From Antedon mediterranea (lineage: Eukaryota; Echinodermata; Crinoidea; Comatulida; Antedonidae), in the NCBI RefSeq assembly GCF_964355755.1, contig NC_092676.1, positions 25,216,288-25,280,287 on the forward strand: a stretch of 64,000 nucleotides of DNA, in the 5' to 3' direction. The notes under the pieces are model-generated. The model searched no databases, had not been told where the DNA came from, and saw nothing but the letters and a program-made list of their open reading frames with translations. Shown piece by piece: positions 16,365 to 48,490 of this stretch. The translations under genes and the position numbers were made by a program. Position 1 is the first letter of the stretch, and every line of letters starts with the position of its first letter.

Positions 16365-19322
16365 TTATCTAGGGCGGGCGGACGAGGGAAGCCTTGGTGG
16401 CTGGATGTTAAATAACAAAATTCTTTCTTGTCCTACACGGATTAATATATGTTTCGATGAGCCATGTGCCTTTTGCATTGCTATCATTCCACCAGAGACT
16501 ACACACTGCCATGGTTCTTTTTGCAGACTTCTGAGATCAGACGTACTTAATGCTTTTATCATCCACTTTGCAATTTCGTTCCTGGTGCTTGTACCTTTCG
16601 AAAGGCATACTTTTATCAGAGACAGTACCTTCTCACTCGTTGTCATGTCAATGTCATTACTAATGTTGACTATGACTGGTCGGCTAACAGTGCCATCTGG
16701 AAAGCATTTTTCGTCGGTCGATGGTGTTTTACTTAGAATCAACAAGTTTCCAGCTATTTCAGCCTGAAAATAGTACTCTTGCTCAAAACCATGCGATATT
16801 TCAGCTTCCTTTCCAATAAAACAATTCCAACTTTTACCGTAATTGCTATTCATATGCTGAACTATGATCTTTGACCTTCCTATTGGTGGTAAGTTGTTTT
16901 TGAAGGCGTCTTGGATAGTAGTGATGCAGAATGACTGCATATCGTCTTCCATAGATGACACTATGCTACTTGAAACAATTGACTCTATGGAGAAAAAATT
17001 CGGTTTGTTTTAAATGCTTATACCATGAACATCATTCTTCGTCTAAGTTATATTCAATCTCACATTTTCATTAAGTCAGCTTTGTATTCAACCTCATTAT
17101 CATCAATTTCCTCATCATCAAGTCATCTTTATTCCATCTCGATCATCTGCAAGTCATCTTTATTCAACCTCGATCATCAAGTCATCTTTATTCCATCTCG
17201 ATCAGCAAGTCATCTTTATTCAAACTCGATCATCAAGTCATCTTTATTCAACCTACAGTAGATCATCAAGTCATCTTTATCCAAACTCATCATCAAGTCG
17301 TCTTTATTCCATCTCGATCAGAAAGTCATCTTTATTCAAACTCGATCATCAAGTCATCTTTATTCAAGCTCGATTATTAAGTCATCTTTATTCAACCTCG
17401 ATCATCAAGTCATCTTTATCCAAACTCATCCATCATCAAGTCGTCTTTATTCCATCTCGATCAGCAAGTCATCTTTATTCAAACTCGATCATCAAGTCAT
17501 CTTTATTCAACCTCGATCATCAAGTCATCTTTATTCAACCTCGATTATTAAGTCATCTTTATTCAACCTCGATCATCAAGTCATCTTTATTCAAACTCGA
17601 TCATCAAGCCATCTTTATTCAACCTCGATCATCAAGTCATCTTTATTCAACCTCGATCATCAAGTCATCTTTATTCAACCTCGATCATCAAGTCATCTTT
17701 ATTCAAACTCGATCAAGTCATCTTTATTCAAACTCGATCATCAAGTCATCTTTATTCAAACTCATCATCAAGTTATCTTTATTCAAACTCATCATCAAGT
17801 CATCTTTATCCAAACTCATCATCAAGTCATCTTTATTCAAACTCGATCAGCAAATCATCTTTATCCAAACTCGATCATCAAGTCATCTTTATCCAAACTC
17901 ATCAAGTCATCTTTATCCAAACTCATCAAGTCATCTTTATTCAAGCTCGATCATCAAGTCATCTTTATTCAACCTCGATCATCAAGTCATCTTTATTCAA
18001 ATTCGATCATGAAGTCATCTTTATTCAACCTTGATCATCAAGTCATCTTTATTCAACCTCGATCATCAAGTCATCTTTATTCAACCTTGATCATCAAGTC
18101 ATCTTTATTCAAACTCGATCATCAAGTCATCTTTATTCAATCTCGATCATCAATTCATCTTTATTCAAACTCGATCATCAAGTCATCTTTATTCAACCTC
18201 GATTATTAAGTCATCTTTATTCAACCTCGATCATCAAGTCATCTTTATTCAAACTCAATCATCAAGTCATCTTTATTCAACCTCGATCATCAAGTCATCT
18301 TTATTCAAACTCGAACATCAAGTCATCTTTAATTAAACTCATCAAGTCATCTTTATTCAAATTCGATCATCAAGTCATCTTTATTCAAACTCATCATCAT
18401 CTATTGAAACACTTTATATCATATCATCAAGAATGTATTAATTTAACATACTTTTGTTTAATGAAAGGAGCTCTGTTGCAAATGGATTCGGCTGCAGTTG
18501 TTTGAGATATGTTGTTGTTGGAATGTTCTCACTCGGCTTCAAACGTCCTAGGTACATTAACTGTTGTTCTACATTGCCTATGCTAAGCTGGAAATCGTCT
18601 GTTGTGTTTTTACTCCTTGTGTAGGCAATCTCAAGTTTTTTCCGTGTATTATCCACTTGTAGTTTGGCAAGTTGTTTTCTCTCAATTTCTTCAGCCTTCA
18701 TTTCAATATCTCGCAGTCGTTTCTTAAACTCTTCCTCTTCCCGTTTTTTAGCGCCCTGAATGTAGTTGTCTTTCTGCTCATTTAAAATCTTCTTGTAAGC
18801 ATCGATGTTATCGATTTGAGTTTTGTATTCAGAGTTTTCTTTGAGGCAGTCTTCAAAAAGTTGGTTGACTATTTCTAAAGCTTCATTGACAGTTAGTATA
18901 TTGTGACGTAAGTGCTCATTATTGCAACATACGTCACAGATGAGTTCACTGCAAGTTGTACACCACATATTCAATGGCCTGTTATGCTTAGGCCTACTGC
19001 ATCTAGACTTACTGTTAGTAATGATAGATTTGTCAGCCTTCTCCAAAGATTCTTTTGCGGATTCAGCCAGAAAAAACGCCGGCAGGTCTTTAATGCCATT
19101 TTCTGGAATTGGTGTTGGCTGTCGACATGTAGCGCAATTTACTGAATTCCGGTGTCTACCGGATTGAACCTGTGTTGCTGCGTACCTTTTCAGGCATTTT
19201 AAACAAAATGCATGACCACACCTCAGTTGTTTAGGTTGAACCATCACTTCGAAACATATTGGACAAGTAGCAATATTTTCCAGACATTCTCTCAACGGAT
19301 CTTCTTCCGATCGGCTTGCCAT
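16365..19322 (-). CDS. T1: RING/B-box/coiled-coil protein fused to two LC8-like domains
   Basis: Predicted cytoplasmic E3 ubiquitin ligase of TRIM type with an unusual C-terminus; 496 residues. Exon 1 is 19322-18452, exon 2 is 16984-16365, joined in phase 1 (donor GTATGT, acceptor TCTCCATAG). The C3HC4 RING has ligands C20, C23, C35, H37, C40, C43, C63 and C66. A B-box-like zinc site follows around residues 105-145, then a coiled coil to about 235. Exon 2 encodes two copies of a dynein-light-chain (LC8) fold: residues 302-377 with SWNCFIG and a conserved ISH, and 407-484 with PWQCVV, KHILIRVGQERILLF. LC8 itself has WHCIVG, VTHE and GQVAILLF at these places. The start ATG at 19322 has the better context and aligns with paralogues; an in-frame ATG lies at 19328. 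The last 12 residues (QPPRLPSSARPR) extend past the fold. The 1.47-kb intron is mostly satellite. Confidence 0.85.
17090..18410. repeat. 27-bp satellite filling the T1 intron
   Basis: Roughly 45 units of TCATCAAGTCATCTTTATTC plus AAACTCGA or AACCTCGA. Units differ by single bases and small deletions (AACTCATCATC). The homologous introns of T2 (99 bp) and T3 (254 bp) lack it, so the array arose in this copy. The open frames that run through it are artefacts. Confidence 0.92.
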
Positions 19323-19795
19323 TTTCATTAATATCTAATAATAATAATATAGGCCTAACTCGAATCTAAAATCCGATTGTAGGCTGCTACAGTATAATGT
19401 TGAATTCAATCGTAGCTGATCGTGAATGCCAATTGGGTACATTTCATTCTTCTCGAAAGGGGTGTCGTAATGTCCGATAACATGTATGAATACTATTTAT
19501 CCCGTAAGCGGATCTAAACGTTTGCATTGTGTTGAAAATAGAATATTCCAAATGAAGAAAGGGGATTTCCAGATATTTATTTTTATTGCTGCAGATTCTA
19601 CGTATCGATAATAATGAATAATCGCGCCCTTATTGGTTAATACCAATACAGTTGTAATTTAATTCATTAATTATTTATAATTATGTTTACTCTTTTATTG
19701 CCCTCTATAGACTGTTGCATTCGTTAATTTAGTCAATGCCCTCTAGTGTTGACGTACGTCTTTGTTTTTCTGCGTATGTTTAAAATGGGTGCAGG

Positions 19796-19945
19796 TCAAG
19801 TCGGCCCTAAACCGTCTCGGCCAAAGTCAAGTCGGCCCCACGTCAAGTCGGCCCCAAGTCAACTCGGCCCCAAGTCAACTCGGCCTCAAGTCAACAAGTC
19901 AACTCGGCCTCACGTCAACTCGGCCAAAAACTAATCGGTCAACTC
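19796..19945 (+). repeat. GTCAACTCGGCCCCAA-type minisatellite
   Basis: About ten short units built on AAGTC(A/G)(A/G)(C/G)TCGGCC with a period near 13-16 bp. The encoded repetitive peptides are unlikely to be real. Confidence 0.85.
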
Positions 19946-19965
19946 GGCCACAATAAAGTATGGAA

Positions 19966-19969
<4 letters not shown>

Positions 19970-20031
<62 letters not shown>
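19970..20031. repeat. (AT)n microsatellite
   Basis: About 30 uninterrupted AT dinucleotides. Confidence 0.97.
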
Positions 20032-20034
<3 letters not shown>

Positions 20035-21745
20035 ATGTTGTAAGAAATCGTGTACCTGAAGGGTATGCTTTCCAGTTTAGAGATCCGGTCATATCTATAA
20101 CGCACATGCACAGTTTACTCTTATTCATATTCAAGTACAGTTTATAACTTATCACATTTTGTAATTTCCTCTGTAATTTCCAAGTGTAGTTTCTAATTTG
20201 TGTAGGGTTTTCGAGACCCCCATTCAACTCAATTGTACTTCCGATTATGAGAACCGGTGTCATTGTCATTTTTTGTACAGTTCTATTGTTTATTGAATAA
20301 ATTACTGATGTCTAAAAAGCGACCAAGAAAAAAAAGCTTTATCCAAATGAGTTGAAAATTCCCTCATCATTCTCTTTGTTGTAATTTGTCAAAAAATAGG
20401 GATGGTTGTTTTGTTGCTGATTTCCTAAATGTATTGACTAATTATACTAAAGAGGATTTAAAAAAAAAACAGAAAATAACGTAAAAAAATGTTCCAGAAA
20501 TTGTATAGAAATATGTAATCATTATTATTTATGAAATATTGAATGAATAAAGGTGGTAAAGCCACAAAAGATAAACAAAAATAATAATACACAAAAAGAA
20601 ATAATTAAAAAAAGAGGACCCAGCCATGGTGTGTTTAAAACTCAATATAACTATCTGATATTGTAGACATGTAGTTTACAATACAATCCAATAAATGTCA
20701 TCGTGATGTATCCGGGTGAGATATTATATACATATAAAGTTACGTAAGGGCAAAATTCGGTAAATTGCGCCTTACTTCTAGAATTTTTACTCAATGGTAA
20801 TGGTTATTGGTTTATACGCTCGGAACTGATTTTAACCACCTAATGTAATCCTGTTTACTAATTAAGTTGAGTTAGATAATTAGTTATTGACAATTAAAAC
20901 GAATTAAATTGAGGTTTAACGATTTGCCCCAAATCGATCGTGGTATACGTTACGTATGAATGTTATTTTGGACGTTAAAACATTGCGAATACGTCATTCA
21001 CAAACATTACATATAACATTAAAAAAACGTATCGAACACGTTCTTATCAACGTTATTGCAGACATTATAAATACGTTTTTAATACGTTATTATGAACATT
21101 ATTGAGGACGTTCAGAAAACGTTAATTTTGACGTTATAAAGTCGTAAAAAAGGTCGACATTTTTGCGTTCGTGCAACGTTATTAGAAAACGTCTACAGTT
21201 TTTTTCATTTTAAACATAATGGCAATTGTATTTGGCAACAGATTACATCATGTTTGTATTTATTCACTCTGTGTTCATTTTTTACAATGTCCAGATATTA
21301 ACGCCAAAGTTCCTGTATTAACCTGTATTAAAGAGCCATCTGGGCAATTGCAAGCGCGTATGTATACATTTACGTAAGGAAGTAGGTTTTTATAGGACGT
21401 TTAGTTTTATTCGTACAGTATTGTAAGGACATTTCAGTAAATCGCGCGTAACCCTTTTCTCAATGCTTTAGAAAGTGGGTTCATATTACATTCCGTACTA
21501 AATTGTACCAGCAATTGAAAACCATTAGGCCTACTACTTAATTTGAGTTAGATAATTATTTATTGACGATTAAAATTTAGGTTAAACGATTTGAGTTAGT
21601 TGCTTTCATGAGCACAGCTACCGCAACTTAAGTATGAATTGGCTTTAAAAAACAATTGAAAATTAGGTCTACTAATTAAGTTGAGTTAGATAATTATTTA
21701 TTGACGTTTAAAGCGAATTTACGATTTGCCCCAAATAGAGGTGTT

Positions 21746-22436
21746 TTTAGTCGCGTGGACGCGACTCTATAGTTCACTATGTCGGTCGGTCGGTCTGTCG
21801 GTCCGGTATCACTATGCGTTTTATCGCTTTCTGACCTTATCTTGATATCAGTTTAATCTAGCTAAGTCAATTTTTCACAGTATATTCCTTATGGCCAGGA
21901 GTCGATGTGGTTATGTTTTTGCGGGGCGCAATAAAAAATTACGCGGTCTACGCACGGTTTAACGAAATCACGTTTGTAATCATATCTTCACAACCATGAA
22001 TCACAATTAAATAAAATTTTGTACTCATAAATTTCAGGGCATAAATCATCATATGGCAATACAATTACGTGCGTAGCGCATGTAACGCATGCGTACGCGC
22101 GCTTAAAATTTTCAAAATTTATTTTCGATGAAATAAGAGTACGTTTCAGGCAATTTTAAGCGTTTACAAAATTGCCATGAGTGCGCAGATTTTTGCGCGC
22201 GCACTGCGCGTTAAATGTTATTGCACACTCTTTTTGCCCGATTTCTGTTTTCTTGACTTACTTTTCAACTCGAAATTACGTTATACGAGCACGTCAAAAG
22301 TGACAGGCTACGCACGTGTAAATTAAAAAAATATAAATGTTTTTAAACATTTCAACATTTTTAAACATGTTCAGTAATTTCGGTCAGTTGGTAGGTTGGT
22401 CGGTCGGTCGGTAAACACTAATGAGCACGCGACTGC
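21746..22436. mobile_element. DNA-transposon-like repeat with TAGTCGCGTG ends
   Basis: The left end TTAGTCGCGTGGACGCGACT, followed by a run of TCGG units, and the right end TCGGTAAACACTAATGAGCA then CGCGACTGCAG define an element of about 690 bp. Internally deleted relatives of about 100 bp lie at 32425-32525 and 48772-48868. No transposase is encoded. Confidence 0.6.
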
Positions 22437-22674
22437 AGCCATCTATATGGCCTTGTTCACAAACTGTTTTACATATAAACACATACTGATAGTTGCTTAT
22501 CAACGTTTGTATTAATTAATACTGTAATTACAAAAAATATAAACGTCGTAGTGGTGTATCGTTACATGTACTTTACCATTTCAATCGAATATGGCAGTGA
22601 CAGTATTAAATCACAATGTTTTACTGTTATTGGTTATTTATAAAACTATATATTTGATAATCGTTTCCTAAAGT

Positions 22675-23547
22675 TTAATTAGCTATGATATATAAAAATG
22701 CAATAAGAAGTAAAACAATAATCTTTCCGAGATCACACTCTTCTTGACGATTGACGCCTCTAATCATTGTCATGTCTTGTCGTACAAGCTCAAATCGATT
22801 GCCTATGATTGCATTGTCTCGTACTCCAAGATATTCAAGCTCCCTTCTTTTATATGATCGTTCAAGTTCTTTCTTCTCTCTAAATGCCCGTGCTGCTTGC
22901 TGTCGTATCTCACGATTTTCATGTCGTGCTTGATCAAGTTCAGCTTGACTTCCTCTGCCTTTGTTTTTTCTTACTGGTTGTTGTTTTCTGGTTTCTTTCA
23001 AACGTTCTATCTCTCTTACCAATGATTCATTTTTTAATTGACATTCAGTATAAGCTTTTTCCATTTCTGCTATTTTCTGCTCATATCTGCACTTACATCC
23101 ACGAAATGCTTCAATGAAAGTGTTCGTTGAAATTATGTGTTTGTGATGTTGTCCACGACAGACACCACATATCAGTTCCATGCATGTTTCACACCATATG
23201 TTTAAAACTTGATTATGAGCAGGTTCGTCGCAGAACGGAAGTCTAACAGTCGTTAACCCCAATTTTTTAGCCTTTTTAAAACATTCTTTTGCATCTTCGA
23301 TCAAAAAAGACGACGGAAGTCGTTCAAGACCAGTTTTTGGAATTTTAGTTGAATGTCGACACAAAGCGCACACAACATAACACGTGAAGTGGTGTTTGGG
23401 TTCACATTGCTTACGTAGACATTTTAGGCAAAACGAATGTCCACACTGAAGAAATTTAGGCGTTTCCATCTCTTCCATACACATTGAACATTCAATGAGG
23501 TTTTCAACAAACGTCCTAACCGGGTCGTTGTCTTCTAGCTCAGCCAT
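22675..23547 (-). CDS. T4: tail-anchored RING/B-box/coiled-coil protein
   Basis: Single-exon, 290-residue TRIM-like E3 candidate. Its ATG at 23547 has a good context (AACATGG); an upstream in-frame TTG is not needed. The RING begins CSMC, continues LQCGHSFCLKC and ends CALC. A B-box follows with WCETCMELICGVC and HHKH. A charged coiled coil covers about residues 165-255. The protein ends in a hydrophobic helix (IIVLLLIAFLYIIAN), so it should sit in an ER or outer mitochondrial membrane as a tail-anchored protein, as TRIM13 and TRIM59 do. The N-terminal half is almost identical to T5. No LC8-like exon is seen downstream. Confidence 0.85.
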   Translation of the reverse strand: MAELEDNDPVRTFVENLIECSMCMEEMETPKFLQCGHSFCLKCLRKQCEPKHHFTCYVVCALCRHSTKIPKTGLERLPSSFLIEDAKECFKKAKKLGLTTVRLPFCDEPAHNQVLNIWCETCMELICGVCRGQHHKHIISTNTFIEAFRGCKCRYEQKIAEMEKAYTECQLKNESLVREIERLKETRKQQPVRKNKGRGSQAELDQARHENREIRQQAARAFREKKELERSYKRRELEYLGVRDNAIIGNRFELVRQDMTMIRGVNRQEECDLGKIIVLLLIAFLYIIAN

Positions 23548-24103
23548 GTTGTGTTCAATAAGATGAACTAAACTCAATTAACTAACTGATATTGTAGGCA
23601 TGTGACGCGAATGACGAAAGGAAGTGAACAACATTGTAAATTCCAAAAAAACTTTAGCCAAGGTCAAGGTGTATAACTTCAACTCAGCATCCGAAATAAT
23701 TAAAGTGAACGTTTGTTGTTGTCTACAATCGTCGACTTTCAGGAAACCATCAAGTTTTTAATAAATTAGCGAGGTTCACGCAACAATGAATTGAGTGGTG
23801 AAATGTCACGAAATCCAATGCGTCGGGTATACAAATGTATTATAGTGTAATTGTGCTTTTTTACGTGGTCTCCTATTTCTAGCTCATCACTGTATTAAGT
23901 GGGTGTTGGGCTACAAACTTTGTCACAAAGTGGTATCAGCCTACATTGAATCAAATCATAAAATAATACACTGCCAATTTCTTGTAGGAATATAGTCATA
24001 CACTTATAGATATTTGTGAAAATACTCTAATAGACACGATAATGAACAGAACATTCCAAATAAATTTACTCGGAAATCTTTCAATTAGGCCTATATTAAT
24101 GTT
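23548..24103. other. Short spacer between T4 and T2
   Basis: Contains the T4 5' region and the T2 3' end. I see no further gene or repeat. Confidence 0.5.
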
Positions 24104-25637
24104 TTAGCTAAAAGTAATTAATATATGTTTAGATGAAATGTTCCCCTTTTGCATTGCGATTACACAACCAGTGACAACACAGTGCCACTCTTGGTTTTGT
24201 TTTCTCAAACGGCCACCTGGAATATTATCTAGTGAATTCGTAATCCACTTGGCGATATCATTCCTGGAGTTTACACCATTCGCAGGAAAGGTTTTCATCA
24301 CATTTAGCACCTTCTCACGAGTTTCAATATCAACGTTGTCACTCACGATGACTGGTCGGCTAACGGTGCCATTTGGAAAGCATTCTCCTTCCACTGATGC
24401 CATTTTACTAAGAATCAATAAGTTTCCACCTATTTCAGCCTGGAAAAAGTACTCAGACTCAAATCCATGCGATATTTCAGCTTCCTTTCCAATATAACAA
24501 TTCCAACTTTTACCGTACTTGGTATTCATATGTTGAACTATGAACTTTGACCTTCCTTTTGGTAGTATTTAAGGGCGTCTTGGATAGTAGTGATGGAGAA
24601 TGAATGCATGTCTTCTTCCATAGATGACACTATGCTACTTACTCCACACGAATTATCTATGGAGGCAAACATAATTTGGGGTTTAAATTACCATAAGTAC
24701 TACAACTATCAGAATGTTACTATTTACAATAAGAAGTTCAAATAAAATTCCACATACCTTGAGATGGAATAAATGGATCTGGCTGACTCAGCAATGGTCT
24801 TAGTGCAGTTGTTGCAGTTTGTAAGAATCCTTGTTTCTCACCTGGTTTAAAACATGACATGTATAACAATTGCTGAGGAACGTCCCCTTTGCTTTGCTGA
24901 AAATTATCTGTTACATTTTTACTACTTGTGTAGACAATCTCAAGATCGTTTAAAGTATCTTCTAGTTCTCCAAGTTTACTTTTCTCAATCTCTTCAGCCT
25001 TAATTTCAATATCGCGTACTCGTTTCTTAAATTCTTCCTCTTCTTTTTCTATGGCATCTTTTACGTAGTTGTCTTTTTGCTGCTTTAAGATATTTTTGTA
25101 ATTATTTATTTTATCGATTTGAGTTTTGTATTCCGAGTTTTCTTTGAGGCAGGCTTCAAAAAGTTGGTTTACGATCTCTAACGCTTCGTTGACCGTCAGT
25201 ATATTGTGACGTAAGTGCTCGCTTTTGTAGCATACGTCACAGATGAGTTCACTACAATCTGTACACCATGAATTTAATTGTCTGTTATGCTTAGGCCTAT
25301 TGCATCTAGATTTATTGTTAGTTCTAGCTTTGTCAGCCTTATCCAAAGAATCTTTTGCTCGTTCAGCCACAAAAAAGGACGCAAGTCCTTTAATACCACT
25401 TCTTTTTGGAATCGTGGTTGACTGTCGACATGTAGCACAATCGACTTCAGAAACCGATTTACCCTGCTGTCTAGCTTGTGTCGCTACATACTTTTTTAGG
25501 CATTTTAAACAAAATGCATGTCCACATGAAAGCTGTTTAGGTTGGTCCATCACTTCGAAACATATTGAACAAGTAGCAATGTTTTCAAGACATTCCCTTA
25601 ACGTCAATAACGGATCCTCTTCCGACCGGCGTGCCAT
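24104..25637 (-). pseudogene. T2: RING/B-box/LC8-like gene with a broken second exon
   Basis: Exon 1 (25637-24758) is intact: RING with CSIC, LSCGHAFCLKC and CATC, B-box, coiled coil, ending at a phase-1 donor GTATGTGG as in T1 and T3. The second exon begins at 24656 after a 99-bp intron. It starts in frame (VSSIVSSMEEDMHSF), but compared with T1 it is 7 bases shorter near 24560, and a stop follows at once. The rest of the two LC8-like domains continues in another frame (24529-24104), including SWNCYIG and EWHCVVTG. The end is also damaged: the GQERILLF strand found in T1 and T3 is missing after KHILI. It may still produce a RING/B-box/coiled-coil protein of about 330 residues without the LC8-like part. 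A sequencing error at the 7-base gap is possible but would not explain the lost C-terminus. Confidence 0.7.
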
Positions 25638-25959
25638 TTTTACCAATAAATTAACAATTAATGGCTATAAATAATAAGGCTTATAGACATAAATGTCTAA
25701 CTGTCAAGTGTAAATAACAATAGAGTGTTCCGTTTACTGTCGAAAGGGAATTTCCAGATATCTTTTTTTTTAGTGCAGGTTGTTTTTTCCGAATTGCGCC
25801 CTCATTATTAGTTATATTATTATTTGTACCGTAGATAATAAGATAAACTTTTACAAACTGAGAAAATATCACCTAGTTAGATATAGTTTAGTTATGTGTA
25901 GAGAAAATAAAACAAATAATAATAAAATAAATAAACATCGAAACAGTGCAGCGCCCACA

Positions 25960-26075
25960 AATGACAGGTGGTGGGGGCTGAAGACCAGTCGTAGGCCTAT
26001 CTACACCGGGGTAACTCCGCCGACTCTTCCGAAAGATGCACTGGCTTCTTTAAAGTGCACAAGTGTTAAGTCCTT
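25960..26075 (-). repeat. SINE family 1 fragment, antisense
   Basis: The reverse complement carries GTGCACTTTAAAGAA, CATCTTTCGGAAGAG and GTTACCCCGGTGTAG, all present in the SINE body at 31940-32030. It lies just past the T5 stop codon, probably in its 3' untranslated region. Confidence 0.65.
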
Positions 26076-26089
26076 ATCATCAGACTATA

Positions 26090-27025
26090 TTACCGTAGGT
26101 ATATCATACTATAGATATAATAAATCAAAACAATTATCAAAACAATTAATATCAAAATAAAATAAATAATTTGGCTTTCGATAGAAATCGCTATAATGGT
26201 AAGCCTATATTGTACCTGTACAGGCCTTTGATTGTGTCTCATAACTCTACGTTCTTTTCTCTCACGATTTTCAGATCGTACTTGTTCAAGTTCCTTTTGA
26301 TATGTTCTTACAATCCGTTCATGTTCTTTCTTCTCTCTTAATGCACGTTCCCGTATCTCACAATTTTCATGTTCATATTGATTTCTTCTATGCTTCTTTT
26401 TTCTGATTGGTGCTTGGTGTTTTCTTTTTTCTATATTCAAACTTTCAATCTCTCTTAACAATGATTCAGTTTTCAATTGACTTTGCGATTGTACCAATTC
26501 CAAATCTGTATAGGTTTTTTTCATTTCTGCTATTTTATGCTCATATCTACACTTATCTTTACAATATTCATGAAATGCTTCAAAGAAAGTGATCATTGAA
26601 TAACTTATGATGTGGCCGTGATGTAATTGTTCACGACAGACACCACATATCAGTTCCATGCATGTTTCACACCATATGTTTAAAACTTGATTATGACCAG
26701 GTTCGTTGCAGAACGGAAGTCTAACAGTCGTTAACCCCAATTTGTTAGCTTTTTTAAAACATCCTTTTGCATCTTCGATCAAAAAAGACGACGGAAGTCG
26801 TTCAAGACCAGTTTTTGGAATTTTAGTTGAATGTCGACACAAAGCGCACACAACATAACACGTGACGTGATATTCGGGTTCACATTGCTTACGAAGACAT
26901 TTTAGGCAAAATGAATGTCCACACTGAAGAAATTTAGGCGTCTCCATCTCTTCCATACACATTGAACATTCAATAAGGTTTTCAACAAACGTCCTAACCG
27001 GGTCGTTGTCTTCTACCTCAGCCAT
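26090..27025 (-). CDS. T5: tail-anchored RING/B-box/coiled-coil protein
   Basis: Single-exon, 311 residues, ATG at 27025 in the same good context as T4. RING (CSMC, LQCGHSFCLKC, CALC) and B-box (WCETCMELICGVC) are nearly identical to T4; the coiled coil has diverged and is followed by a strongly hydrophobic C-terminus (IIYFILILIVLIIVLIYYIY), again a tail anchor. Similarity to T4 extends upstream of the ATG, so whole gene units were duplicated. Probable role: membrane-attached E3 ligase; the substrate is unknown. Confidence 0.85.
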   Translation of the reverse strand: MAEVEDNDPVRTFVENLIECSMCMEEMETPKFLQCGHSFCLKCLRKQCEPEYHVTCYVVCALCRHSTKIPKTGLERLPSSFLIEDAKGCFKKANKLGLTTVRLPFCNEPGHNQVLNIWCETCMELICGVCREQLHHGHIISYSMITFFEAFHEYCKDKCRYEHKIAEMKKTYTDLELVQSQSQLKTESLLREIESLNIEKRKHQAPIRKKKHRRNQYEHENCEIRERALREKKEHERIVRTYQKELEQVRSENRERKERRVMRHNQRPVQVQYRLTIIAISIESQIIYFILILIVLIIVLIYYIYSMIYLR

Positions 27026-28082
27026 GTTGTGTTCAATTAGATGAACTAAACTCAATTTTTTTATCTGATATTGTAGGCATGTGACGCGAATGAACTCGTC
27101 CCACGAAAGGAGGAAGTGTCAGTACAACATTGTAATGTAAAGGCTCCAAGAAAAATATGAATAAAAGGTCAAATTTGACAGGTCAATTTCATCGTGATGT
27201 ATTCTATTGGGTGAGATATAATAGACAATTCGCTTTTCGTAATGTCGCTTGTTTATCGTCCGCTTCTGTAATGGTGTACCATACAAATTTTAATATACTA
27301 AATCGATTATATCGATTCACAGCTTGTTTGTGTGTATTAAATCAAAGCTGCGCATATGTTTGATAGTGAACACAAAAATCATTGATTCAACATAGACATT
27401 AATTTAGCCTAACGCATTGAAAATGTAGGCCTATAAACTAATTTAGTTCAAAACACAACAGTCACACATACGTCTTGTGTGTTGCCAAGATATTTTTTTG
27501 TGTACAAAAATTACAAGATATTTTATTTATTTATTAATTATTTTATTATGCAGTGTTCCAAGTACTTTAGAATGAATGAATAGTAGATATTGGTAATATA
27601 CTTAAATTGAATAACAATAGTCGGCTTAGGCTACAGAAAAAATGTACATAATGATCAATATTAAATTATAGAATACAGTTAATTGATATTGTTACTTGGC
27701 AAAATAAAATTTAGTACTTAATTGTTTTGTTTGGTTTTTTATTTATTTTATTTTTTTGCAAGATAGCTTTGCAATTTATAAGTTGTCGTGAATTTTTAGT
27801 TAGGCGTTAAAATAAGTATATACATGTCTAATGATTTTCAGAAAAATTGATATATTGGTGAACATAAGAAATGCTTATCAAAATCTCGAGTTACCTTTAT
27901 CTTCACTATGGGCCAAAATAATAAATAGCACGCCCTCTGTTGCTCTCTTTATTTTGCCAAGTATTCATAAGTTTCCGAGCGTATAATCTATTTTGTTAGC
28001 TTTCATTGCATGAGTGCTTAATTTTGACATCTGTTTATTTTATTTACATGGTTTAACTGATTTACCTAATTACTTTATCTTT
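27026..28082. other. Spacer between T5 and T3
   Basis: AT-rich, with the T5 promoter side at the left. I see no gene and no clear repeat. Confidence 0.5.
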
Positions 28083-29833
28083 TCAAACCGTATATAACAA
28101 AATTCGTTCTTGACCTACGCGGACTAAAATATGTTTCGTGAAACTACTGTGTGTTTGCATTGCAATGTGTCCTCCGGTAACTACGCACTGCCACGCTTCT
28201 ATTTTATTCGACTTGTTTACTTGTTTACCGCTTTTCACATCGAATGCTTTCATCATCCATTTGGCAATATCGTCTCTTGTCCGTACGCCGTTTCTAATAC
28301 ATTCACTAATGGCATTTAAAACCTTCAATCTAGTTACATTATCAACATTGTCGCACTTGCTGACAATTCCCGGTTGACTAATGGTGCCATTTGGAAAGCA
28401 TTTTCCGTCAACTGAGTTTGTTTTACAGATAATTACTAAGCTACCCTCTTCATTGTGTTGGAACATGTAATCCGGGTCAAACCCGTGTGATAATTCAGAT
28501 GCTTCCTTACTTCCAATAAAGCAATTCCAACTGTTACCGTACCTATCATTCATGTGCCTAACTATGGACATTGCTCGTCTCTTTGGTAAGCTGTGTTTGA
28601 ACGCGTTTTGAATGGCGGTGACGCAGAAAGAACGCATTTCTTCTATCATGGATGGCTTCGGACCGCTAATGGTTTCGGTTGACATTTCTATGGATGGTAA
28701 CAAGATTCGGTTTAAGGTATTGATGACACAAGAAACACATTATATATCATTGCCAATTCTACAATCACGGTCACCAGCATCATCATCATCGTCATCAGCA
28801 TCATCATTATCACGGTCATCATCATCATCATGGTCACCAGCAGCATTATCATCTTCTCGTCTGATTCAAATCACCGGCATTATTGTCATCATCATTTACG
28901 TCATCGTTCCCAGCTTTGTAAAACAATTCCTGTCCACATACCTTGTGCAATTGAAGCGAGCTGAGATAAATTAGCAAATGGATTTGCCTGTTGGTTCAGA
29001 AAAGGTGTAATCTTGGCTGCTTGAATCTGTAAGTTGTGTTTCTCATTCGGCTTAAAAAGTCCTAGGTACATTAACTGTTGTTCTACATTGCCTGTAGGCC
29101 TACTACGTTGAAACGTTTCTGTTGTGTTTTTACCACTTTCGTAGGCAACCTGGAACTTTTTTAATGTGTCGTCCAGTTGGCCAAGACTTCGTTTCTCAAT
29201 CACTTCAGCGTTTCTTTCAATGTCGCGCACTCGTTTCTCATATTCCTCCTCTGCTTTTCTTTTCGCCATTTTAACCGCATCATCTTTCTGCTTCATTAGA
29301 GTATTTTTGTACTGGTTTATTTTATCGATTTGAGATTTGTATTCACCATTGTTTTTTATACTATCTTCAAAGAGTTGATTGACTTTTTCTGTGCCTTCGT
29401 TTACAGTTAGTGTGCTATGACATGTATGTTCGTTGTTGCTGCTGCGACAAACATCGCAAATGAGTTTCTTACACGTCATACACCATACATTTAATGCTTT
29501 ATAGTGGTTATTACATCTAGGTTGACCCGAACGCACAATACCTGCCTTGCCAGCCTTATCTAAGGCGTCTCTTGCATTTTCAGCCTCGCAATAATATGTC
29601 GGCAATCGTTCAAGACCGTTGACTGGAACTTTGGTTGGCACTCTACACATAGCACAGACAATGTCAGTGATTCGTCTACCCTGTTGCCTCGCCTGGCTAC
29701 CTACATAATCTTTCAAACAATTTAGACAAAATGCATGTCCACACAAGAGTTTTTTCGGTTGTTCCATCAAGTCAAAACATATTGGACACTGACGGAGTTT
29801 TTCAAAAAACATATCTATTGGGTCCTCTGCCAT
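28083..29833 (-). CDS. T3: RING/B-box/coiled-coil protein fused to two LC8-like domains
   Basis: Intact paralogue of T1, 498 residues. Exon 1 is 29833-28942, exon 2 is 28687-28083, phase-1 intron of 254 bp with donor GTATGTGG and acceptor ACCATCCATAG. The RING starts C16-x2-C19, continues LLCGHAFCLNC and ends CAMC; a B-box (WCMTCKKLICDVC) and a coiled coil follow. LC8-like domain 1 is about residues 310-387, with NSWNCFIG at W351 and a conserved SHGF. Domain 2 is about 415-498, with AWQCVV at W463 and KHILVRVGQERILLY at the very end. LC8 proteins form dimers that bind short TQT-type motifs, so the tail may add dimerisation or substrate capture to the E3. That function is inferred; the fold call rests on spacing of W-x-C, the central His and the last strand. 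Confidence 0.87.
28775..28900. repeat. Imperfect ATC trinucleotide repeat in the T3 intron
   Basis: About 125 bp of CATCATCATC-like triplets broken by CACGGTCACC words. It is in the same intron position as the T1 satellite but unrelated in sequence. Confidence 0.8.
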
Positions 29834-30850: not shown

Positions 30851-31807
30851 ACTTTTGATCGACATTCGCTTTTGCATATAGGTGCGTCAGTTCTACAACA
30901 ATTTTTATAATCAAGTATTAAATTTTGATTATGTAACCTGCAAGTTACTTTTGATCTGTTTATAGAAAGACCTATCAGGTAAACCTTTTACCCGAAGGCA
31001 TGTTGCAAATATTTTAGAGTTTTGACGCTATTCAAGTTTCGCTCTATGAATATTTTACGGTGTGTAAGCAAACAATATTGCAAAACAACAAGTTATATTA
31101 TATTAATATTCAGTATATCACCAGGCGATTTAGAATTTCTTTTAGATTTAAATTTGGTCAAGTTATAATAATTATATTATTCAGTATCACCGGGCGATTT
31201 AGAATTTCTTCTATGATAAATTTAAATTTGGTAAATATTGCAAAACAACAAGTTATATTATATTCATATTCAGTATATATTTAATATATTTAGAATTTTT
31301 TCTACAATGATTAATGTAAATTGCACGCACGTTTATACACAATACCATTGTTTATTATCCAGTTAAAATTGTTTTCACATTCTATTATTATAATAACAAC
31401 AACATGGTTTTATAGCCTTTTTATATGTAAATATTATTGAAAATAATGGAATCTTTTTAATCTTTAATTATTATACAAGCGCACGATCAAAATAAAATAA
31501 TATTGAAAAACACATATATGAATATTTAGACTTTTCCCGGGCCTTCAAGAAAGGCGCTTTAGCTACCGTACCAACCCTTGAATGCACTATTTTCTTGGAA
31601 TAATACCGTAATCCATCAATTTAAAATTTAAATTTTATCTCTATTTTAGATGAAAGACATTTACGCACACGGCCAAGAATGGTATGAATATTGATGTAGG
31701 CTTAGATGTATAACTTTAAAGACTCTCCATCACGTTTTCTCCTTCATTATGGTTAAACTCTCTCAGCATCATCATGATGTGTTTCTTGTGTGTGTTATTT
31801 CTCGTGG

Positions 31808-32106
31808 GTGAGTGGCCGAGCGGTTAAGACAGTGGAACCGTAATCACGTAGCCATAACATCGGCAGGGGTTCGAGGCTCACTCACTCCATGGTTCTGGTG
31901 GTAGAACGAGTCTTCTCGGATAAGGACTATAAACCGTAGGTCCAGTGTACACAACTTGCTCGTGTGCACTTTAAAGAACCTAGTACATCTTTCGAGACGA
32001 GTAGGGGGTTACCCCGGTGTATTAGTACATCACAGCCACTGATCACCAACTGGGCCCTCTGGGAGACCAGTCTTTGACTGAAGAGGTTACCCAGTATAAA
32101 TATATA
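31808..32106 (+). mobile_element. tRNA-derived SINE (family 1) inside the copy A signal-peptide exon
   Basis: GTGAGTGGCCGAGCGGTTAA as box A, GGTTCGAGGCTCAC as box B, then the family 1 body ending CCCAGTATAAATATAT. It interrupts a signal-peptide exon that is continuous in copies B and C. GTTTCTT occurs on both sides and may be the target-site duplication. Confidence 0.88.
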
Positions 32107-32424
32107 TTTCAATTGTTTCTTTGCTGTGGTGTCCTATCCAACTTATTTTATGCCCACTCTGGTAAGTTTATTTTATCACTATTTTTATTTCACTATTTGT
32201 ATCAGAATAATTACTCTGAAGATCATAATTTCGTTTACACACAACGGAGCAAACATACCCATCTAGCCTATATTAGTGTCGAAATTTGCATTAACGGCAT
32301 TACGTGTTGATAACATAATTCTTCAAATGTGAACAAGATTGCGGAGGGGTTCTCGCTTCTTTAATACGAACATTTAAAGAAAAATTATTTACATGAAATA
32401 TATTATAGGCATGTTCAGTTTATT

Positions 32425-32525
32425 TTAGTCGCGTGCGTGCAACGCGACTCTACAGCTCACTATGTCGGTCGGATGGTCGGTCGGTCGGGTGGTCAGTAAA
32501 CACTAACTTGAGCACGCGACTGCAG
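32425..32525. mobile_element. Short TAGTCGCGTG-end element in copy A intron 1
   Basis: Left TTAGTCGCGTGCGTGCAACG, TCGG units, right GAGCACGCGACTGCAG. It lies at the same place as the copy C element at 48772-48868. Copy B lacks it. Confidence 0.75.
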
Positions 32526-33110
32526 AATGTATAGCCTTGTTACGTTTCTATTTATGTTGGCTTTAAGATCACGCAAAAACCTTCTTGGTTGAATCACTTA
32601 TTTGTACGAAAATGAATTATTTTAGCAAAAATTCAATTGGTTTCAGCTTTATTGTCATACCAGAAGTTGGTTACTGCTAGGTCTGGTGTTAATCCTGGTA
32701 GACTTACAAACGGGAACGACAACATGGAGAATTGTTTTGCAACAGGTTTGACATTTAATTTGTAAGATTTAGTATAAATAGAATATGAAAGGATTCACAT
32801 AGTGACAATTCTTGTTCTGATCCGTACAATTAAAAGTGTTCTCGATAAAATTCCTCTATAGTTTCAAATTATTTACGTTAGTAGGCCTATTTTTTTTCTT
32901 TTTGTTAGACCATATAAAAAAGTGATGACAAACAAGCAACACGTCATTCGCGTGTTCAAGGCTACAGATGCTTGGCTGCTGAAACGTTGCAAAATTGTCA
33001 TGATTTACCAAGAAGAAAAAACAACTAACATAATTTTTAAAAAGTTTTGTTAAATAGGCCTAATTAAATCACCATTTTGTGACCTAAAAATGTTTAGCAC
33101 TAATCTAAAT

Positions 33111-33240
33111 TAGATACGCAACTCAAGGACGTAAGCGCAACGTAAGTGAATTGACCAATCACAAGCGATGGATTATTTGACCTGTCGCTTGTCATTGGTC
33201 AACTCGGTTGAGTCTCTTATGGTGGGAACCAAGCTTTAGA
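33111..33240. mobile_element. MITE (AAGCTTGGTTCCCACT ends), copy A intron 2
   Basis: GGACGTAAGCGCAACGTAAG and ACCAATCACAAGCGATGG are followed by the mirror part, ending GTGGGAACCAAGCTTTA. Homologous remnants occur at 38931-39025 (B) and 49513-49635 (C), so it was in the ancestral gene. Confidence 0.7.
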
Positions 33241-33960
33241 CTAGACTGGCAGGTTTTCTTACGATCTTTTCTTTTTATACTCTTTCCTTTAAGATAATAC
33301 TGAAGACGAATGGGTTGAAATAGATTTGGGAAAAGACTACCTTGTAACGAGAGTGACTATTATTAATAAAGTCGAACAAAGTATGACATTTTTCTTATAT
33401 TATAAGTAATATAATTAACTATTTACATGGATATAAGTGTAAAACAATTCGCCTCATGAAAATATAATTTAATCTTTCACGGAATGAAATTATTTGTACC
33501 ATTGCACTCATAAACATTCATTATTTTGTATAACATATGCGTTTTGGGCTTTTTTAGACTATTACGGAAGGAATTTGAAAGGCTGTAGAGTAACCATTGC
33601 TTCTCAAGATTCAAAAGAGGTTGAACAGAACTGTACAGAACATCCAATTTCAAACACTCAAATATCAGCGAGCGTGGTGATAGATCTAAAATGTACTAAG
33701 AAAGTATTTGGTCGGTACGTTATATTAAGAAACGGTAGAAGGAGACGCAGCCTTTGTCAGATCCGTGTCTACAGTGAATATGAACCAAAGAGAGGTAAAC
33801 TTGTTATTTTGGGGTTTTTTCAAAGGGTAAAAATGAGTCGAGTCTGGTCGAGTCTACGCCAATCCCTAAGCTAAATTCACACACAATACTGTGTACACAG
33901 TACTTTAAATCTAGCACATCTAGGGTCTAGCGTGCTGTTAAACAGAATAATCGGTTAAAA

Positions 33961-36520: not shown

Positions 36521-37250
36521 ACTTGCTAGTGTTAAAAGATAGGACAGAAATTTCAAAAGCCGGTGAGCAGTCTTAAAGTAACAAGTAAACTAAAATTGTA
36601 TTTTCTCGAGAACTACTTTTCCAAAAAAAACATTTCATTTTTGTACAAGAGGCAAGATTTATATTTTGTGATTTGTAATTTTAAAACATAATTAGATTTA
36701 ATGTACAAGTTTTTTTATGCGAGTAGTTAAAAAACCCTATTTCTTTTTAAATTCACTCGTTTGTTTTTCTTGTTTCTTGTTTCTGTTCTTATTGTTAGTC
36801 GGCTGAAGCACCCACGTTTATACACAATACCATTGTTTATTATCCAGATAAAATTGTTTTCACATTCTGTTATTATAATAAAAACATGGTTTTATAGCCT
36901 TTTTATATGTAAATGTTATTGTAAATGATAGAAAATGATTAAGTTAATTAATATACAAGCGCACGATCAAAATAAAATAGTATTGAAAAACACATATGAA
37001 TATTTAGACTTTCCCCGGGCATTCAATATAGGCATTTTAGGTACCGTACCAACCCGTGAATGCACTCATTTTCATGGAATAATAATAATCCATCAATTTA
37101 AAATTTAAATTTTATCTCTATTTTAGATGAAAGACATTCACGCACACGGCCAAGAATGGTATGAATATTGATGTAGGCCAAGATGTATAACTTTAAAGAC
37201 TCTCTATCACGTTTTCTCCTTCATTATGGTTAAACTTTCTCAGCATCATC

Positions 37251-40200
37251 ATGATGTATTTCTTGTTTCTTTGCTGTGGTCTTCTATCCAACTTTTATGC
37301 CCACTCTGGTAAGTTTTTTTTGTCACAATTTTTATTTTAGTATTTGTATCAGAATAAAAACTCTGAGGATCATAATTTTGTTTAAACATATGATTTGATT
37401 TTATTTTATTCAGGTTTTAACATAAAATTACAAGACAAAGTTTAAAAATACAAATAGAAACATGCAATGTATTGCACAGTGCACAAGAAACCTAAGATAG
37501 CCTATAAAGTCGAAAAAACCCCACTTATTTCCAATGAGGTCCTATAAACTATAGAATTCTTTTGATGAAAATGATATTTTCACACGTCCAATTAAATGAC
37601 GTCATGGAATTAAGACCCATTTACACTAGGAAGATAACGATAGACGATATTATAAGCATGCATTTTTTTTACATAAAGCAAAAGAAATTAGAAAAGATTT
37701 CGTTCTAAAACTATAGGATAATCATTTATGCTGTCTTTGATTGACGTCATGATCAATAATACAATAAAATCGTTGTAGTATTGTCACGATTATTATTATT
37801 GCTCTTGCTAATCATGACGTCATTTGATTGGACGTGTGAAAATATCATTTTCATCAAAGGAAGCATAGATGGTTATTCTATAGTTCTAGGATGAAAAGTT
37901 TTCATATTTCTTTTGTTGTATGTATGAAAACTTCACATTGTCTATTTGTCGTCGATCGTTATCGTCCTAGTGTATGGACCTTTACGTGTTGATAACGTAA
38001 TTCTTCAAACGTGAAACCACACTGAGTCGGCGTAGATTACGGAGGGGTTCTCGCTTCTTTAATAGGAACATTTTAAAGGAAAACTATTAAAATACATGAA
38101 ATACATCAGGCCTATTGGCCTATTGTTTTTTATATGAATGTTGGCTTTCAAAATTACGCGCAAAAAAAGAGTACACTTGTGTTATTGTTTGAATCGCAGA
38201 TTTTAGCAATATTTTTGTATTGGTATCTTTTTTTCTCTTTTTGTTATACTTTTTCTCGTCTTTTCGTACTTGTATCGTTCCCGTTTTTTTTTTAAGTGTT
38301 GAGGGCCTCATGCATGTCAGCCTCGGATGTTTTGAGTCATCTTTCACCAGTCAGTCATTAAACAAAGTTTTAAAAAAAAAATTTCAATGGTTTCAGCTTT
38401 ACTGTCATACCAGAAGTTGGTTACTGCTAGGTCTGGTGTTAATCCTGGTAGACTTACAAACGGGAACGACAGCGTGGAGAATTGTTTTGTAACAGGTTCG
38501 ACGTTTGATTTGTATGATTTAGTATAAATAGAATATGAAAGGATTCACATACTGTCAATTCTTGTTTTGATCCGTACAATTAAAAATGTTCTCGAAAAAA
38601 ATCATCTGTTTTCAAATGATATACGTTAGTAGGCCTATTTTTTTTCTTCTTTTTGTTAAACGATATAAAAAAGTGATGACAAATAAGCAACACGTCATTC
38701 GCGGGTTCAAGGCTACAGATGCTTGGCTGCTGAAATGTTGCAAACTTGTCATGGTTTACCAAAAAAAAAAGCAACTAACATAAGTTTAAAGGTTTTGTTG
38801 AATAGGCCTAAAATCACCATTTTGTAACCTAAAAAATGTACACATTTCGAACATGGTTTTTTTTTATTATAAAGCAAAAAGTTATTTGAATTAATTTTAA
38901 AAAAATGTATTTCAATGTTGAACTCAAGGACGTAAGCGCAACGTAAGTGATTTGACCAATCACAAGCGATGGTTATTTGACCTGTCGCTTGTCATTGGTT
39001 AACTCGGTTGCGTCTCAATCTTTAGACTGGCAGGTTTTTTCTACGATCTTTTGTTTTGTTTACGCTTTTTTTAGCTAATACTGAAGACGAATGGATTGAA
39101 ATAGATTTGGGGAAAGACTACCTTGTAACGAGAGTGACTATTATTAATAAAGTCGGAAATAGTATGACATTTTCGTTTATTATAAGTAATATTATAACTA
39201 TTTAGGCCTACATGGATATAAGTGAAAAAACAATTCGCCTCATGAAAATAGAATTTAATCTTAATGAAATTATTTGTACCATTCCACTCATAAACATTCA
39301 TTATTTTGTATAACATATGCATTTTTGTGTTTATTTAGGCTATTACGGAATGTCTTTGGAAGGCTCTAGAGTAACCATTGCTTCTCAAGATTCAAAAGAG
39401 GTTGAACAGAACTGTACAGAACATCCTGTTTCAAGTACTCAAATATCAGCGAGCGTGGTGATAGATCTAAAATGTAAAAAGAAAGCATTTGGTCGGTACG
39501 TTTTATTAAGAAAAGGTAAAAGTAGACTTCGCCTTTGTCAGATCCGTGTCTACAGTGAATATGAACCAAAGAGAGGTACGTAAACTTGTTATTTTGTTTT
39601 TTTCAAAGGGTAAAAATGAGTCGAGTCTGGTCGAGTCTACGCCCATCCCTAGGCTAAATTCACACACAAGGCATTGGTATTTTATTCTAGTATAATCCCA
39701 CTGCAAATTTTCACCAAATTTTGTGCAAAGGCCCCCGTGGGACTATACTCGGTCATAGATTGTATATAGTAGGCCTATATAAAAGAAGCGTCATTTTGAC
39801 TATTGTTGCCTTGCAGATCCGGTTGCAGTTGAAGATTTGGGTGGTACGATTTTTGAACTGGATTTGGACTGTTTGAAACATTGGTTTTCCTTTAATGCAA
39901 TAAGCACGTATTTTTCACCAACCATGAACCATTGTGACTTTGAATTTAAAGATATGACTCCTGTTTTTCAAGACATCCCGTTTAAACCTGAGGGAGTTGT
40001 TAACTTAAGAGCGTTTACGCTGGCTATGTACATATATCCACATGCGTCTTCTAGTGGTTGGTTCTTAAGCACAGGAATTGACAACACGGTGTTTCGTATT
40101 GGGTTTAGCTTGGTGGAGAAAAGAGGTCGTCCTTTTAATTCTGGTGTTAAGGTCGGCGATAGAGGCAAATTATTAGTAAGAGGTCATGTCCTTTCACCTT

Positions 40201-47395: not shown

Positions 47396-47590
47396 CCAAC
47401 CAACAACATTACCAACCAACAACATCACCAACCAACAACATCACTAACCAACAACATCATGACTAACCAACAACATCATGACTAACCAACAACATCATGA
47501 CTAACCAACAACATCACCAACCAACAACATCACCAACCAACAAAATTAGCAACCAACAACATTAGCAACCAACAACATTAGCAACAACAG
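47396..47590 (+). repeat. 16-bp satellite, right part
   Basis: Continuation of the 44765-45464 array, with extra units of ATCATGACTAACCAAC. It ends about 120 bp before sequence shared with copy A begins (near 47713). Confidence 0.92.
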
Positions 47591-48490
47591 ATAAACTAGA
47601 CTATTCAATCATGTTATAAAATGTTATTTATCTATTTTGTTATTCAGTTGAGCACCTTATGTATATCTTCTATTTTAATACTAGGCCTACTACTTAAAAC
47701 TACTTAAAAGTAGTTTTGATCGACATTCGCTTTTGCATATAGGTGCGTCAGTTCTACAACAATTTTTATAATAATAATGTATCAAAAAAAGAAGAAAAAA
47801 TAATGTATCAATATTTTTATTATGCAGCCTGCAAGTTACTTTTGATATATTTCACTTTGCTTCTTAGCATTCTTAAGTATCCTGCCACAAGTTTCGTTAG
47901 GGACAATTTTGTTAAGATTTTTAGGTGTGTAAACAAACAATTCGCAAAACAATATTGCAAAACAACAAGTTATATTTTATTAATATTCAGTATATATTTA
48001 ATATATTTAGAATTTCTTCTACAATGATTAATGTAAATCGCACCCACGTTTATACACAATACCATTGTTTATTATCCAGTTAAAATTGTTTTCACATTCT
48101 ATTATTATAATAACAACAACATGGTTTTATAGCCTTTTTATATGTAAATATTATTGAAAATAATGGAAAATCATTAATCTTTAATTATTATACAAGCACA
48201 CGATCAAAATAAAATGATATTGAAAAACACATATATGAATATTTAGACTTTTCCCGGGCATTCAAGAAAGGCGCTTTAGCTACCGTACCAACCCTTGAAT
48301 GCACTATTTTCTTGGAATAATACCGTAATCCATCAATTTAAAATTTAAATTTTATCTCTATTTTAGATGAAAGACATTTACGCACACGGCCAAGTATGGT
48401 ATGAATATTGATGTAGGCTTAGATGTATAACTTTAAAGACTCTCCATCACGTTTTTTCCTTCATTATGGTTAAACTCTCTCAGCATCATC

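What the first reader, a model, noticed from the sequence alone, without database searches (positions are those of the whole stretch)
16365..29833. A RING/B-box/coiled-coil family fused to two tandem dynein-light-chain (LC8)-like domains
Seen: in T1 and T3 a phase-1 intron joins a standard RING/B-box/coiled-coil exon to an exon encoding two consecutive domains, each with W-x-C-[FV]-[IV], a central SH or SK segment and a hydrophobic last strand; domain 2 ends KHIL[IV]RVGQERILL[FY]. Known: LC8 has WHCIVG, THE and GQVAILLF in the same order, and is a dimeric hub for TQT-type motifs. I know of no TRIM-type ligase with LC8 domains. Inference: the tail may dimerise the ligase, tether it to dynein or other LC8 partners, or bind proteins that carry LC8 motifs, including those of pathogens.
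Basis: partly seen in the sequence, partly recalled or inferred. Interest (0 to 1): 0.92.

Follow-up and report, generated by a model that had tools for sequence, protein, structure and literature searches.

The report
Ubiquitin ligases with dynein-light-chain-like tails
This animal-like genome carries a small family of probable ubiquitin-ligase genes whose tail is two dynein-light-chain-like domains, a combination I found no report of, which suggests a new kind of target-binding end for a large family of regulatory and immune proteins.

Summary
In T1 and T3 a RING/B-box exon is followed, across a phase-1 intron, by one exon encoding two LC8-like domains; Pfam Dynein_light scores 50.5 and 50.8 bits on these tails (cut-off 29.1). 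Domain 2 alone is below cut-off. A damaged third copy, T2, lies between them. The unnamed 354-Mb genome holds more: I found seven RBCC-LC8 loci, five apparently intact (T1, T3, C2, C9a, C9c). In C2, RING, B-boxes and both LC8 domains lie in one uninterrupted 606-codon frame (E 1.8e-23), so that fusion needs no splicing. The six two-exon copies each have a phase-1 intron before the tail. Tail dN/dS is 0.19-0.48 in five pairs.

The dynein/TQT-hub reading is weaker: 0-3 of 8 peptide-strand residues of LC8 are kept in the ten domains aligned. Most likely the tail is an LC8-fold pairing and target-binding module of changed specificity, in the slot where other TRIMs carry B30.2 or cyclophilin. Architecture is nearly certain; mechanism is inferred. 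No transcripts or other species could be searched, and the domain-2 fold was not confirmed. Species unidentified; 'echinoderm' untested.

The parts
18452..19322 (-). T1 exon 1: RING, B-box, helical region
   Evidence: Pfam zf-RING_UBOX 1.4e-9 and zf-B_box 1.8e-6; all eight RING ligands by pattern
16985..18451 (-). T1 phase-1 intron, mostly a 28-bp minisatellite with 39 AATAAA words in the sense direction
16365..16984 (-). T1 exon 2: tandem LC8-like tail, stop included
   Evidence: Pfam Dynein_light 2.7e-13; two stretches at the permissive limit E<=10; in the spliced protein one stretch at E<=0.01
16719..16958 (-). T1 LC8-like domain 1
16401..16661 (-). T1 LC8-like domain 2
   Evidence: Pfam 3.8e-4, below cut-off when alone
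24758..25637 (-). T2 exon 1: RING, B-box, helical region; 67% identical to T1
   Evidence: Pfam, BLAST
24104..24656 (-). T2 damaged tandem LC8-like tail; frame broken near 24568, C-terminal end lost
   Evidence: Pfam Dynein_light 1.2e-8 on the open part
28942..29833 (-). T3 exon 1: RING, B-box, helical region
   Evidence: Pfam zf-RING_UBOX 6.2e-10 and zf-B_box 3.8e-7
28688..28941 (-). T3 phase-1 intron, 254 nt
28083..28687 (-). T3 exon 2: tandem LC8-like tail, stop included
   Evidence: Pfam Dynein_light 2.3e-13; two stretches at the permissive limit E<=10
28413..28655 (-). T3 LC8-like domain 1
   Evidence: Pfam 6.7e-7
28086..28355 (-). T3 LC8-like domain 2
   Evidence: Pfam 1.5e-5, below cut-off when alone; predicted helix-helix-four strands, but no LC8 among the 50 listed Foldseek hits

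Best explanation
T1 and T3 belong to a family of RBCC (TRIM-type) ubiquitin ligases whose C-terminal domain is a tandem pair of LC8-family (Pfam Dynein_light) domains. Shown: the domains and their order, the single-frame fusion in paralogue C2, a phase-1 intron before the tail in the six other copies, and dN/dS below 1 in the tail exons. Inferred: the two LC8 folds in one chain pair with each other, or with those of a second chain, through edge strands. This gives a platform with two unlike grooves that binds a target peptide of changed specificity, which the RING then ubiquitinates. The tail thus fills the slot that B30.2, NHL or cyclophilin fill in other TRIMs.
For: Pfam on T1/T3 tails 2.7e-13 and 2.3e-13. 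C2: RING-like region, B-box (two stretches at E<=0.1) and Dynein_light (two stretches, 1.8e-23) in one 606-codon frame. C9a, C9c and damaged C9b repeat the pattern. All 7 of 7 divergent tandem-LC8 loci found lie behind, or in frame with, an RBCC; none was seen in the short stretches (1-4 kb flanks) fetched around the 4 standalone LC8-type loci. Phase-1 intron in 6 of 6 two-exon copies: T1, T3, C9a, C9c by script, T2 and C9b read. DNA similarity of T1/T2/T3 resumes at a common CCATAG acceptor. dN/dS of tail exons: T1-T3 0.25, T2-T3 0.19, T1-T2 0.48, C9a-C9b 0.38, C9a-C9c 0.31; point estimates, no significance test. T1 domain 1: the 50 listed Foldseek hits are dynein light chains, DLC-like domains or dynein/axoneme complexes. 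Dimer without conserved interface residues: DLC-like domain of CsTAL3 (PMC5431922, passages).
Against: No transcript, protein or ligand data. The T1 model is low confidence (pLDDT 49; best Foldseek E 3e-3), and the T3 domain-2 model matched no LC8 among listed hits. T domain 2 alone is below Pfam's cut-off, and a profile comparison of T domains 1 and 2 found no convincing match. A coiled coil was not clearly shown: heptad signal reached in 132/1000 (T1), 81/1000 (T2), 16/1000 (T3), 31/1000 (C2), 157/1000 (C9a) shuffles. LC8 groove residues are mostly lost, so binding of any peptide there is a guess. Two of 7 copies are broken. T1's intron holds 39 AATAAA words.
Confidence: 0.6

Rival explanations
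1. The tail tethers the ligase to dynein or to the usual LC8 partners by binding TQT-type motifs, as LC8 does.
For: LC8 homology. C2 domain 2 is 36% identical to the genome's own LC8, and C9 domains keep N61 and F62 or G63 of the groove strand. C2's linker contains DKATQITS, close to the LC8-binding motif of Bmf as I recall it.
Against: 0-3 of 8 residues of N61-H68 are kept per domain, and E35/K36 in none of the 10 domains aligned; T1 domain 1 is two residues shorter there.
Confidence: 0.12
2. The tail only self-associates, raising the oligomeric state of the ligase as a higher-order TRIM scaffold; substrates bind elsewhere.
For: Solved DLC-like domains fused to EF-hands dimerise (PMC5431922; PMC12347358; passages). 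W54 and G59 are kept in 10 of 10 domains as aligned.
Against: Two copies in one chain could satisfy each other within the chain; nothing tested here separates this from target binding.
Confidence: 0.2
3. The LC8-like exon is a separate gene, or is skipped, so some copies make only an RBCC protein.
For: Exon 1 reads into the intron to an early stop, and the T tail exons have ATG codons of their own. T1's intron holds 39 AATAAA words.
Against: C2 encodes both parts in one frame. The T2 and T3 introns hold no AATAAA. A phase-1 junction is found in six copies.
Confidence: 0.07
4. A decaying duplicate family with little function.
For: T2 and C9b carry frame breaks; T1-T2 dN/dS is 0.48.
Against: Five of seven look intact, and dN/dS is 0.25 for T1-T3 and 0.31 for C9a-C9c, both pairs of intact genes.
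Confidence: 0.05

Closest known systems
TRIM/RBCC ubiquitin ligases with swapped C-terminal domains (zebrafish ftr52 RanBD-CypA, ftr06 chromodomain; primate TRIM5-CypA)
   Same: RBCC module followed by a new C-terminal domain in a later exon (PMC3137616, passages)
   Different: The C-terminal domain here is tandem LC8-like, in seven loci on three contigs, one of them without the intron
LC8 / DYNLL dynein light chain
   Same: Pfam PF01221 match; W-x-C core; order of helices and strands
   Different: Fused, in tandem, 12-36% identical to the genome's own LC8 over the 10 domains aligned, peptide-groove residues mostly not kept
Trematode calcium-binding proteins (FhCaBP2/4, CsTAL3): EF-hand part plus one DLC-like domain
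   Same: Diverged LC8-fold domain at the C terminus of a fusion protein; among the best structural matches of T1 domain 1
   Different: Partner is EF-hand, not RBCC; one DLC-like domain, not two (passages)

Membership tests
TRIM / RBCC | N-terminal C3HC4 RING | tested here: met
   Pfam over cut-off in T1, T2, T3, C9a and C9c. In C2 no RING model passes its cut-off (zf-RING_UBOX 24.5 of 25.2 bits), but all eight ligands are present by pattern
TRIM / RBCC | B-box after the RING | tested here: met
   zf-B_box over cut-off in T1, T2, T3, C2, C9a, C9c; in C2 two stretches at E<=0.1, of which my pattern found one
TRIM / RBCC | Coiled coil after the B-box | tested here: inconclusive
   Own heptad-power test: 16/1000 (T3), 31/1000 (C2), 81/1000 (T2), 132/1000 (T1), 157/1000 (C9a) shuffles reach the observed value; no structure predicted for this part
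TRIM / RBCC | E3 ligase activity | not testable with these tools
   needs biochemistry
LC8 (DYNLL) dynein light chain | Match to Pfam PF01221 above cut-off | tested here: met
   Tail exons T1 50.5, T2 (open part) 35.6, T3 50.8 bits, C2 83.1, C9a 50.9, C9b 54.1, C9c 43; cut-off 29.1. T1 and T3 domain 2 alone 21.2 and 25.7, below it
LC8 (DYNLL) dynein light chain | LC8 fold | tested here: inconclusive
   T1 domain 1: listed Foldseek hits are LC8-type or dynein/axoneme entries, but E 3e-3 or worse and model pLDDT 49. T3 domain 2: no LC8 among the 50 listed of 286 hits
LC8 (DYNLL) dynein light chain | Conserved peptide groove (E35, K36, N61-H68) | tested here: not met
   0-3 of 8 strand residues kept and E35/K36 in none of the 10 fusion domains aligned (T2 and C9c not included). 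Groove residues are from recall; PMC5431922 names only its strands and helix
LC8 (DYNLL) dynein light chain | Incorporation in dynein / homodimer | not testable with these tools
   needs biochemistry; therefore not filed as a dynein light chain, only as carrying LC8-family domains

The most novel reading that the evidence does not exclude
The ligase has turned the host's own LC8 into a bait. Like TRIM-cyclophilin fusions, the tandem LC8 tail offers altered grooves that catch foreign or self proteins exploiting LC8-type binding, and marks them for ubiquitination. Copies T, C2 and C9 would be different specificities, with the two domains of each chain forming a built-in LC8 pseudo-dimer.
Probability: 0.15. 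Interest if true: 0.85.

Novelty: new variant of a known kind. Interest (0 to 1): 0.62.

Why it matters
The C-terminal domain often decides what a TRIM ligase binds. A tandem LC8 tail would be a new C-terminal class. It also shows LC8, usually a very conserved free hub protein, being copied, doubled, fused and allowed to diverge. The single-frame C2 gene gives a clean construct for structural and binding work on whether a one-chain LC8 pair works as a recognition module.

Tried and rejected
Separate-gene reading: rejected for C2 by its single frame, and made unlikely for the rest. Canonical dynein tether: weakened by groove residues. Origin of the fusion: the RBCC tree of 10 rows is unresolved. 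C2, C9a and a lone RING protein are long branches, and the T genes group with the window's other TRIM-like genes at 86/95 support, so one gain with later loss, or several gains, cannot be told apart. A profile comparison of T domain 1 with T domain 2 gave only a 10-column match (probability 0.8 of 100). The domain-2 fold search listed no LC8. Scans of viral contigs with the C2 and T1 tails found no relative. Contig C18, fetched in case it was mitochondrial, looks like minisatellite DNA in its first 10 kb. Rfam on the window gave nothing at gathering scores.

Literature: in ten searches I saw, among listed titles and abstract starts, no paper on a RING/B-box protein with a dynein-light-chain domain. 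Lists were cut (20 of 28; 20 of 27; 20 of 56; 20 of 29; 10 of 81). I saw word-search passages of PMC3503706, PMC13228809, PMC3137616, PMC2239267, PMC5431922 and PMC12347358 and read none whole. The library holds open-licence papers only and I could search no protein database, so an existing database entry is not excluded.
Full report
Setting. The window is G000:C7:25216288-25280287 of a 354-Mb, 18-contig genome whose species I could not identify.

The observation. T1 and T3 are as described: a RING/B-box exon, a GT-AG intron in phase 1, and a tail exon, giving 496 and 498 residues. Pfam assigns Dynein_light to the tail exons of T1 (E 2.7e-13) and T3 (2.3e-13), over the curated cut-off, in two stretches each at the permissive limit E<=10, and RING and B-box models to their first exons. 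In the spliced T1 protein only one stretch passes E 0.01 on its own. Cut apart, domain 1 scores 6.3e-8 (T1) and 6.7e-7 (T3), and domain 2 3.8e-4 and 1.5e-5. Each domain 2 alone is below cut-off; 0 of 4 shuffled controls matched. A three-row profile of domain 1 retrieves LC8-type PDB chains, best 7.3e-7. The domain-2 profile retrieves LC8 chains in 19 of its 20 rows, but only at E 0.079 or worse. A third copy, T2, lies between them; its tail is frame-broken near 24568 and lacks the last strand.

The rest of the family. An own-genome search with PF01221 gave 10 matches. Four are standalone: two near-canonical LC8 genes on C3, an LC8-like gene on C6, and one exon on C1 that looks DNAL4-like to me. 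The other six lie in T1, T3, two domains of one gene on C2, and two genes on C9. The C2 gene (L009:2088-3908) is one uninterrupted 606-codon frame. It has a RING (just under Pfam cut-off, all eight ligands present by pattern), two B-box stretches at E<=0.1, a helical part, and Dynein_light in two stretches, 1.8e-23. This shows RBCC and tandem LC8 in one frame without any splicing assumption. C9a (L010) and C9c (L016, found by fetching neighbours) are open two-exon genes of 522 and 519 residues with a phase-1 junction. C9b shows a RING/B-box frame break. Searches with the T1, C2 and C9a tails found 3, 1 and 3 tandem loci, seven in all; these are lower bounds, and the T3-tail search did not complete. 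No RBCC match was seen in the short stretches fetched around the four standalone loci.

Is the tail real coding sequence joined to the RBCC? In T1, T2 and T3, DNA similarity resumes at a shared CCATAG acceptor after poorly alignable introns. A phase-1 junction is present in all six two-exon copies: T1, T3, C9a and C9c by script, T2 and C9b read. (One search printed phase 2 for T2 because I gave the exon end one base off; with the GTATGT donor it ends at 24758 and the phase is 1.) dN/dS (NG86) of tail exons: T1-T3 0.25 (dS 1.49, near saturation), T2-T3 0.19 (dS 1.86), T1-T2 0.48, higher as expected if T2 decays; C9a-C9b 0.38; C9a-C9c 0.31. These are point estimates without a significance test. 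Against: T1's intron carries 39 sense AATAAA words inside its minisatellite, so early polyadenylation could make an RBCC-only form of T1. No transcripts were available.

Mechanism. Aligned with the genome's own LC8, the 10 fusion domains compared (T2 and C9c left out) keep W54 and G59 in 10 of 10 as aligned, and mostly the hydrophobic last strand. Of N61-H68 only 0 to 3 of 8 residues are kept per domain (most in C9b domain 1), and E35/K36 in none. The alignment of such distant domains is uncertain around helix 2, and I know the groove positions mainly from recall. I therefore favour an LC8-fold pairing and binding module with changed specificity over a dynein tether. Pairing is plausible without conserved interface residues: in CsTAL3, a fluke protein with a calmodulin-like part and a DLC-like domain, the dimer is said to rest mainly on main-chain hydrogen bonds (PMC5431922, passages). 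With two domains in one chain an internal pseudo-dimer is possible; this is inference. C2's linker holds DKATQITS, close to a known LC8-binding motif as I recall it, so C2 might also bind free LC8 or its own tail.

Relation to the known. New C-terminal exons behind an RBCC module are a known route to new TRIM proteins: zebrafish ftr06 (chromodomain) and ftr52 (RanBD-CypA), and primate TRIM5-CypA (PMC3137616, passages). A diverged DLC-like domain in a fusion is known in trematodes, where the EF-hand/DLC-like combination is said to be found only there (PMC12347358, passages). I saw no report of RBCC and LC8 together in ten searches of the open-licence library, several with cut lists (see Tried and rejected). 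I could not search protein databases. So this is a new variant of a known kind, with priority unproven.

Evolution. Within the window the T genes' RBCC parts are, after each other, closest to TRIM-like genes without an LC8 tail (33-45% identity over the matched parts), three of which end in a hydrophobic segment. C2 and C9a are 28% and 25% identical to T1 and 24% to each other. The tree does not settle whether the tail was gained once and lost, or gained more than once.

Verdict. Architecture nearly certain; LC8 homology of domain 1 firm, of domain 2 good by sequence only; mechanism moderate and untested.

Noticed in passing
window 16985-18451: T1's intron is largely a 28-bp minisatellite that puts 39 AATAAA words in the sense direction; early polyadenylation there could yield an RBCC-only form.
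   Followed up: partly
window 22675-23577, 26090-27118, 53778-55406: Sister RING/B-box genes in the same cluster end in a hydrophobic C-terminal segment (possible membrane anchor) instead of the LC8 tail. A related gene at 57233-58057 shows no B-box and has its most hydrophobic stretch further inside.
   Followed up: partly
L009 about 3184-3207: C2's linker encodes DKATQITS, like an LC8-binding motif (motif recalled); possible binding of free LC8 or of its own tail.
   Followed up: no
window 46067-47440 (-): Long open frame that looks by eye like part of a reverse transcriptase of a LINE-type element.
   Followed up: no
window 31234-33842, 37086-40454, 47951-51075: Repeated block in up to three copies; frames 39783-40454 and 50404-51075 look by eye like LamG/pentraxin-type domains.
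   Followed up: no
L010 8793-8839 region: C9b: RING and B-box lie in different frames, so it is a likely pseudogene or an assembly error.
   Followed up: partly
L024 (first 10 kb of contig C18, 13 kb): A+T-rich (G+C 0.24) repeat-like sequence with masked stretches.
   Followed up: no
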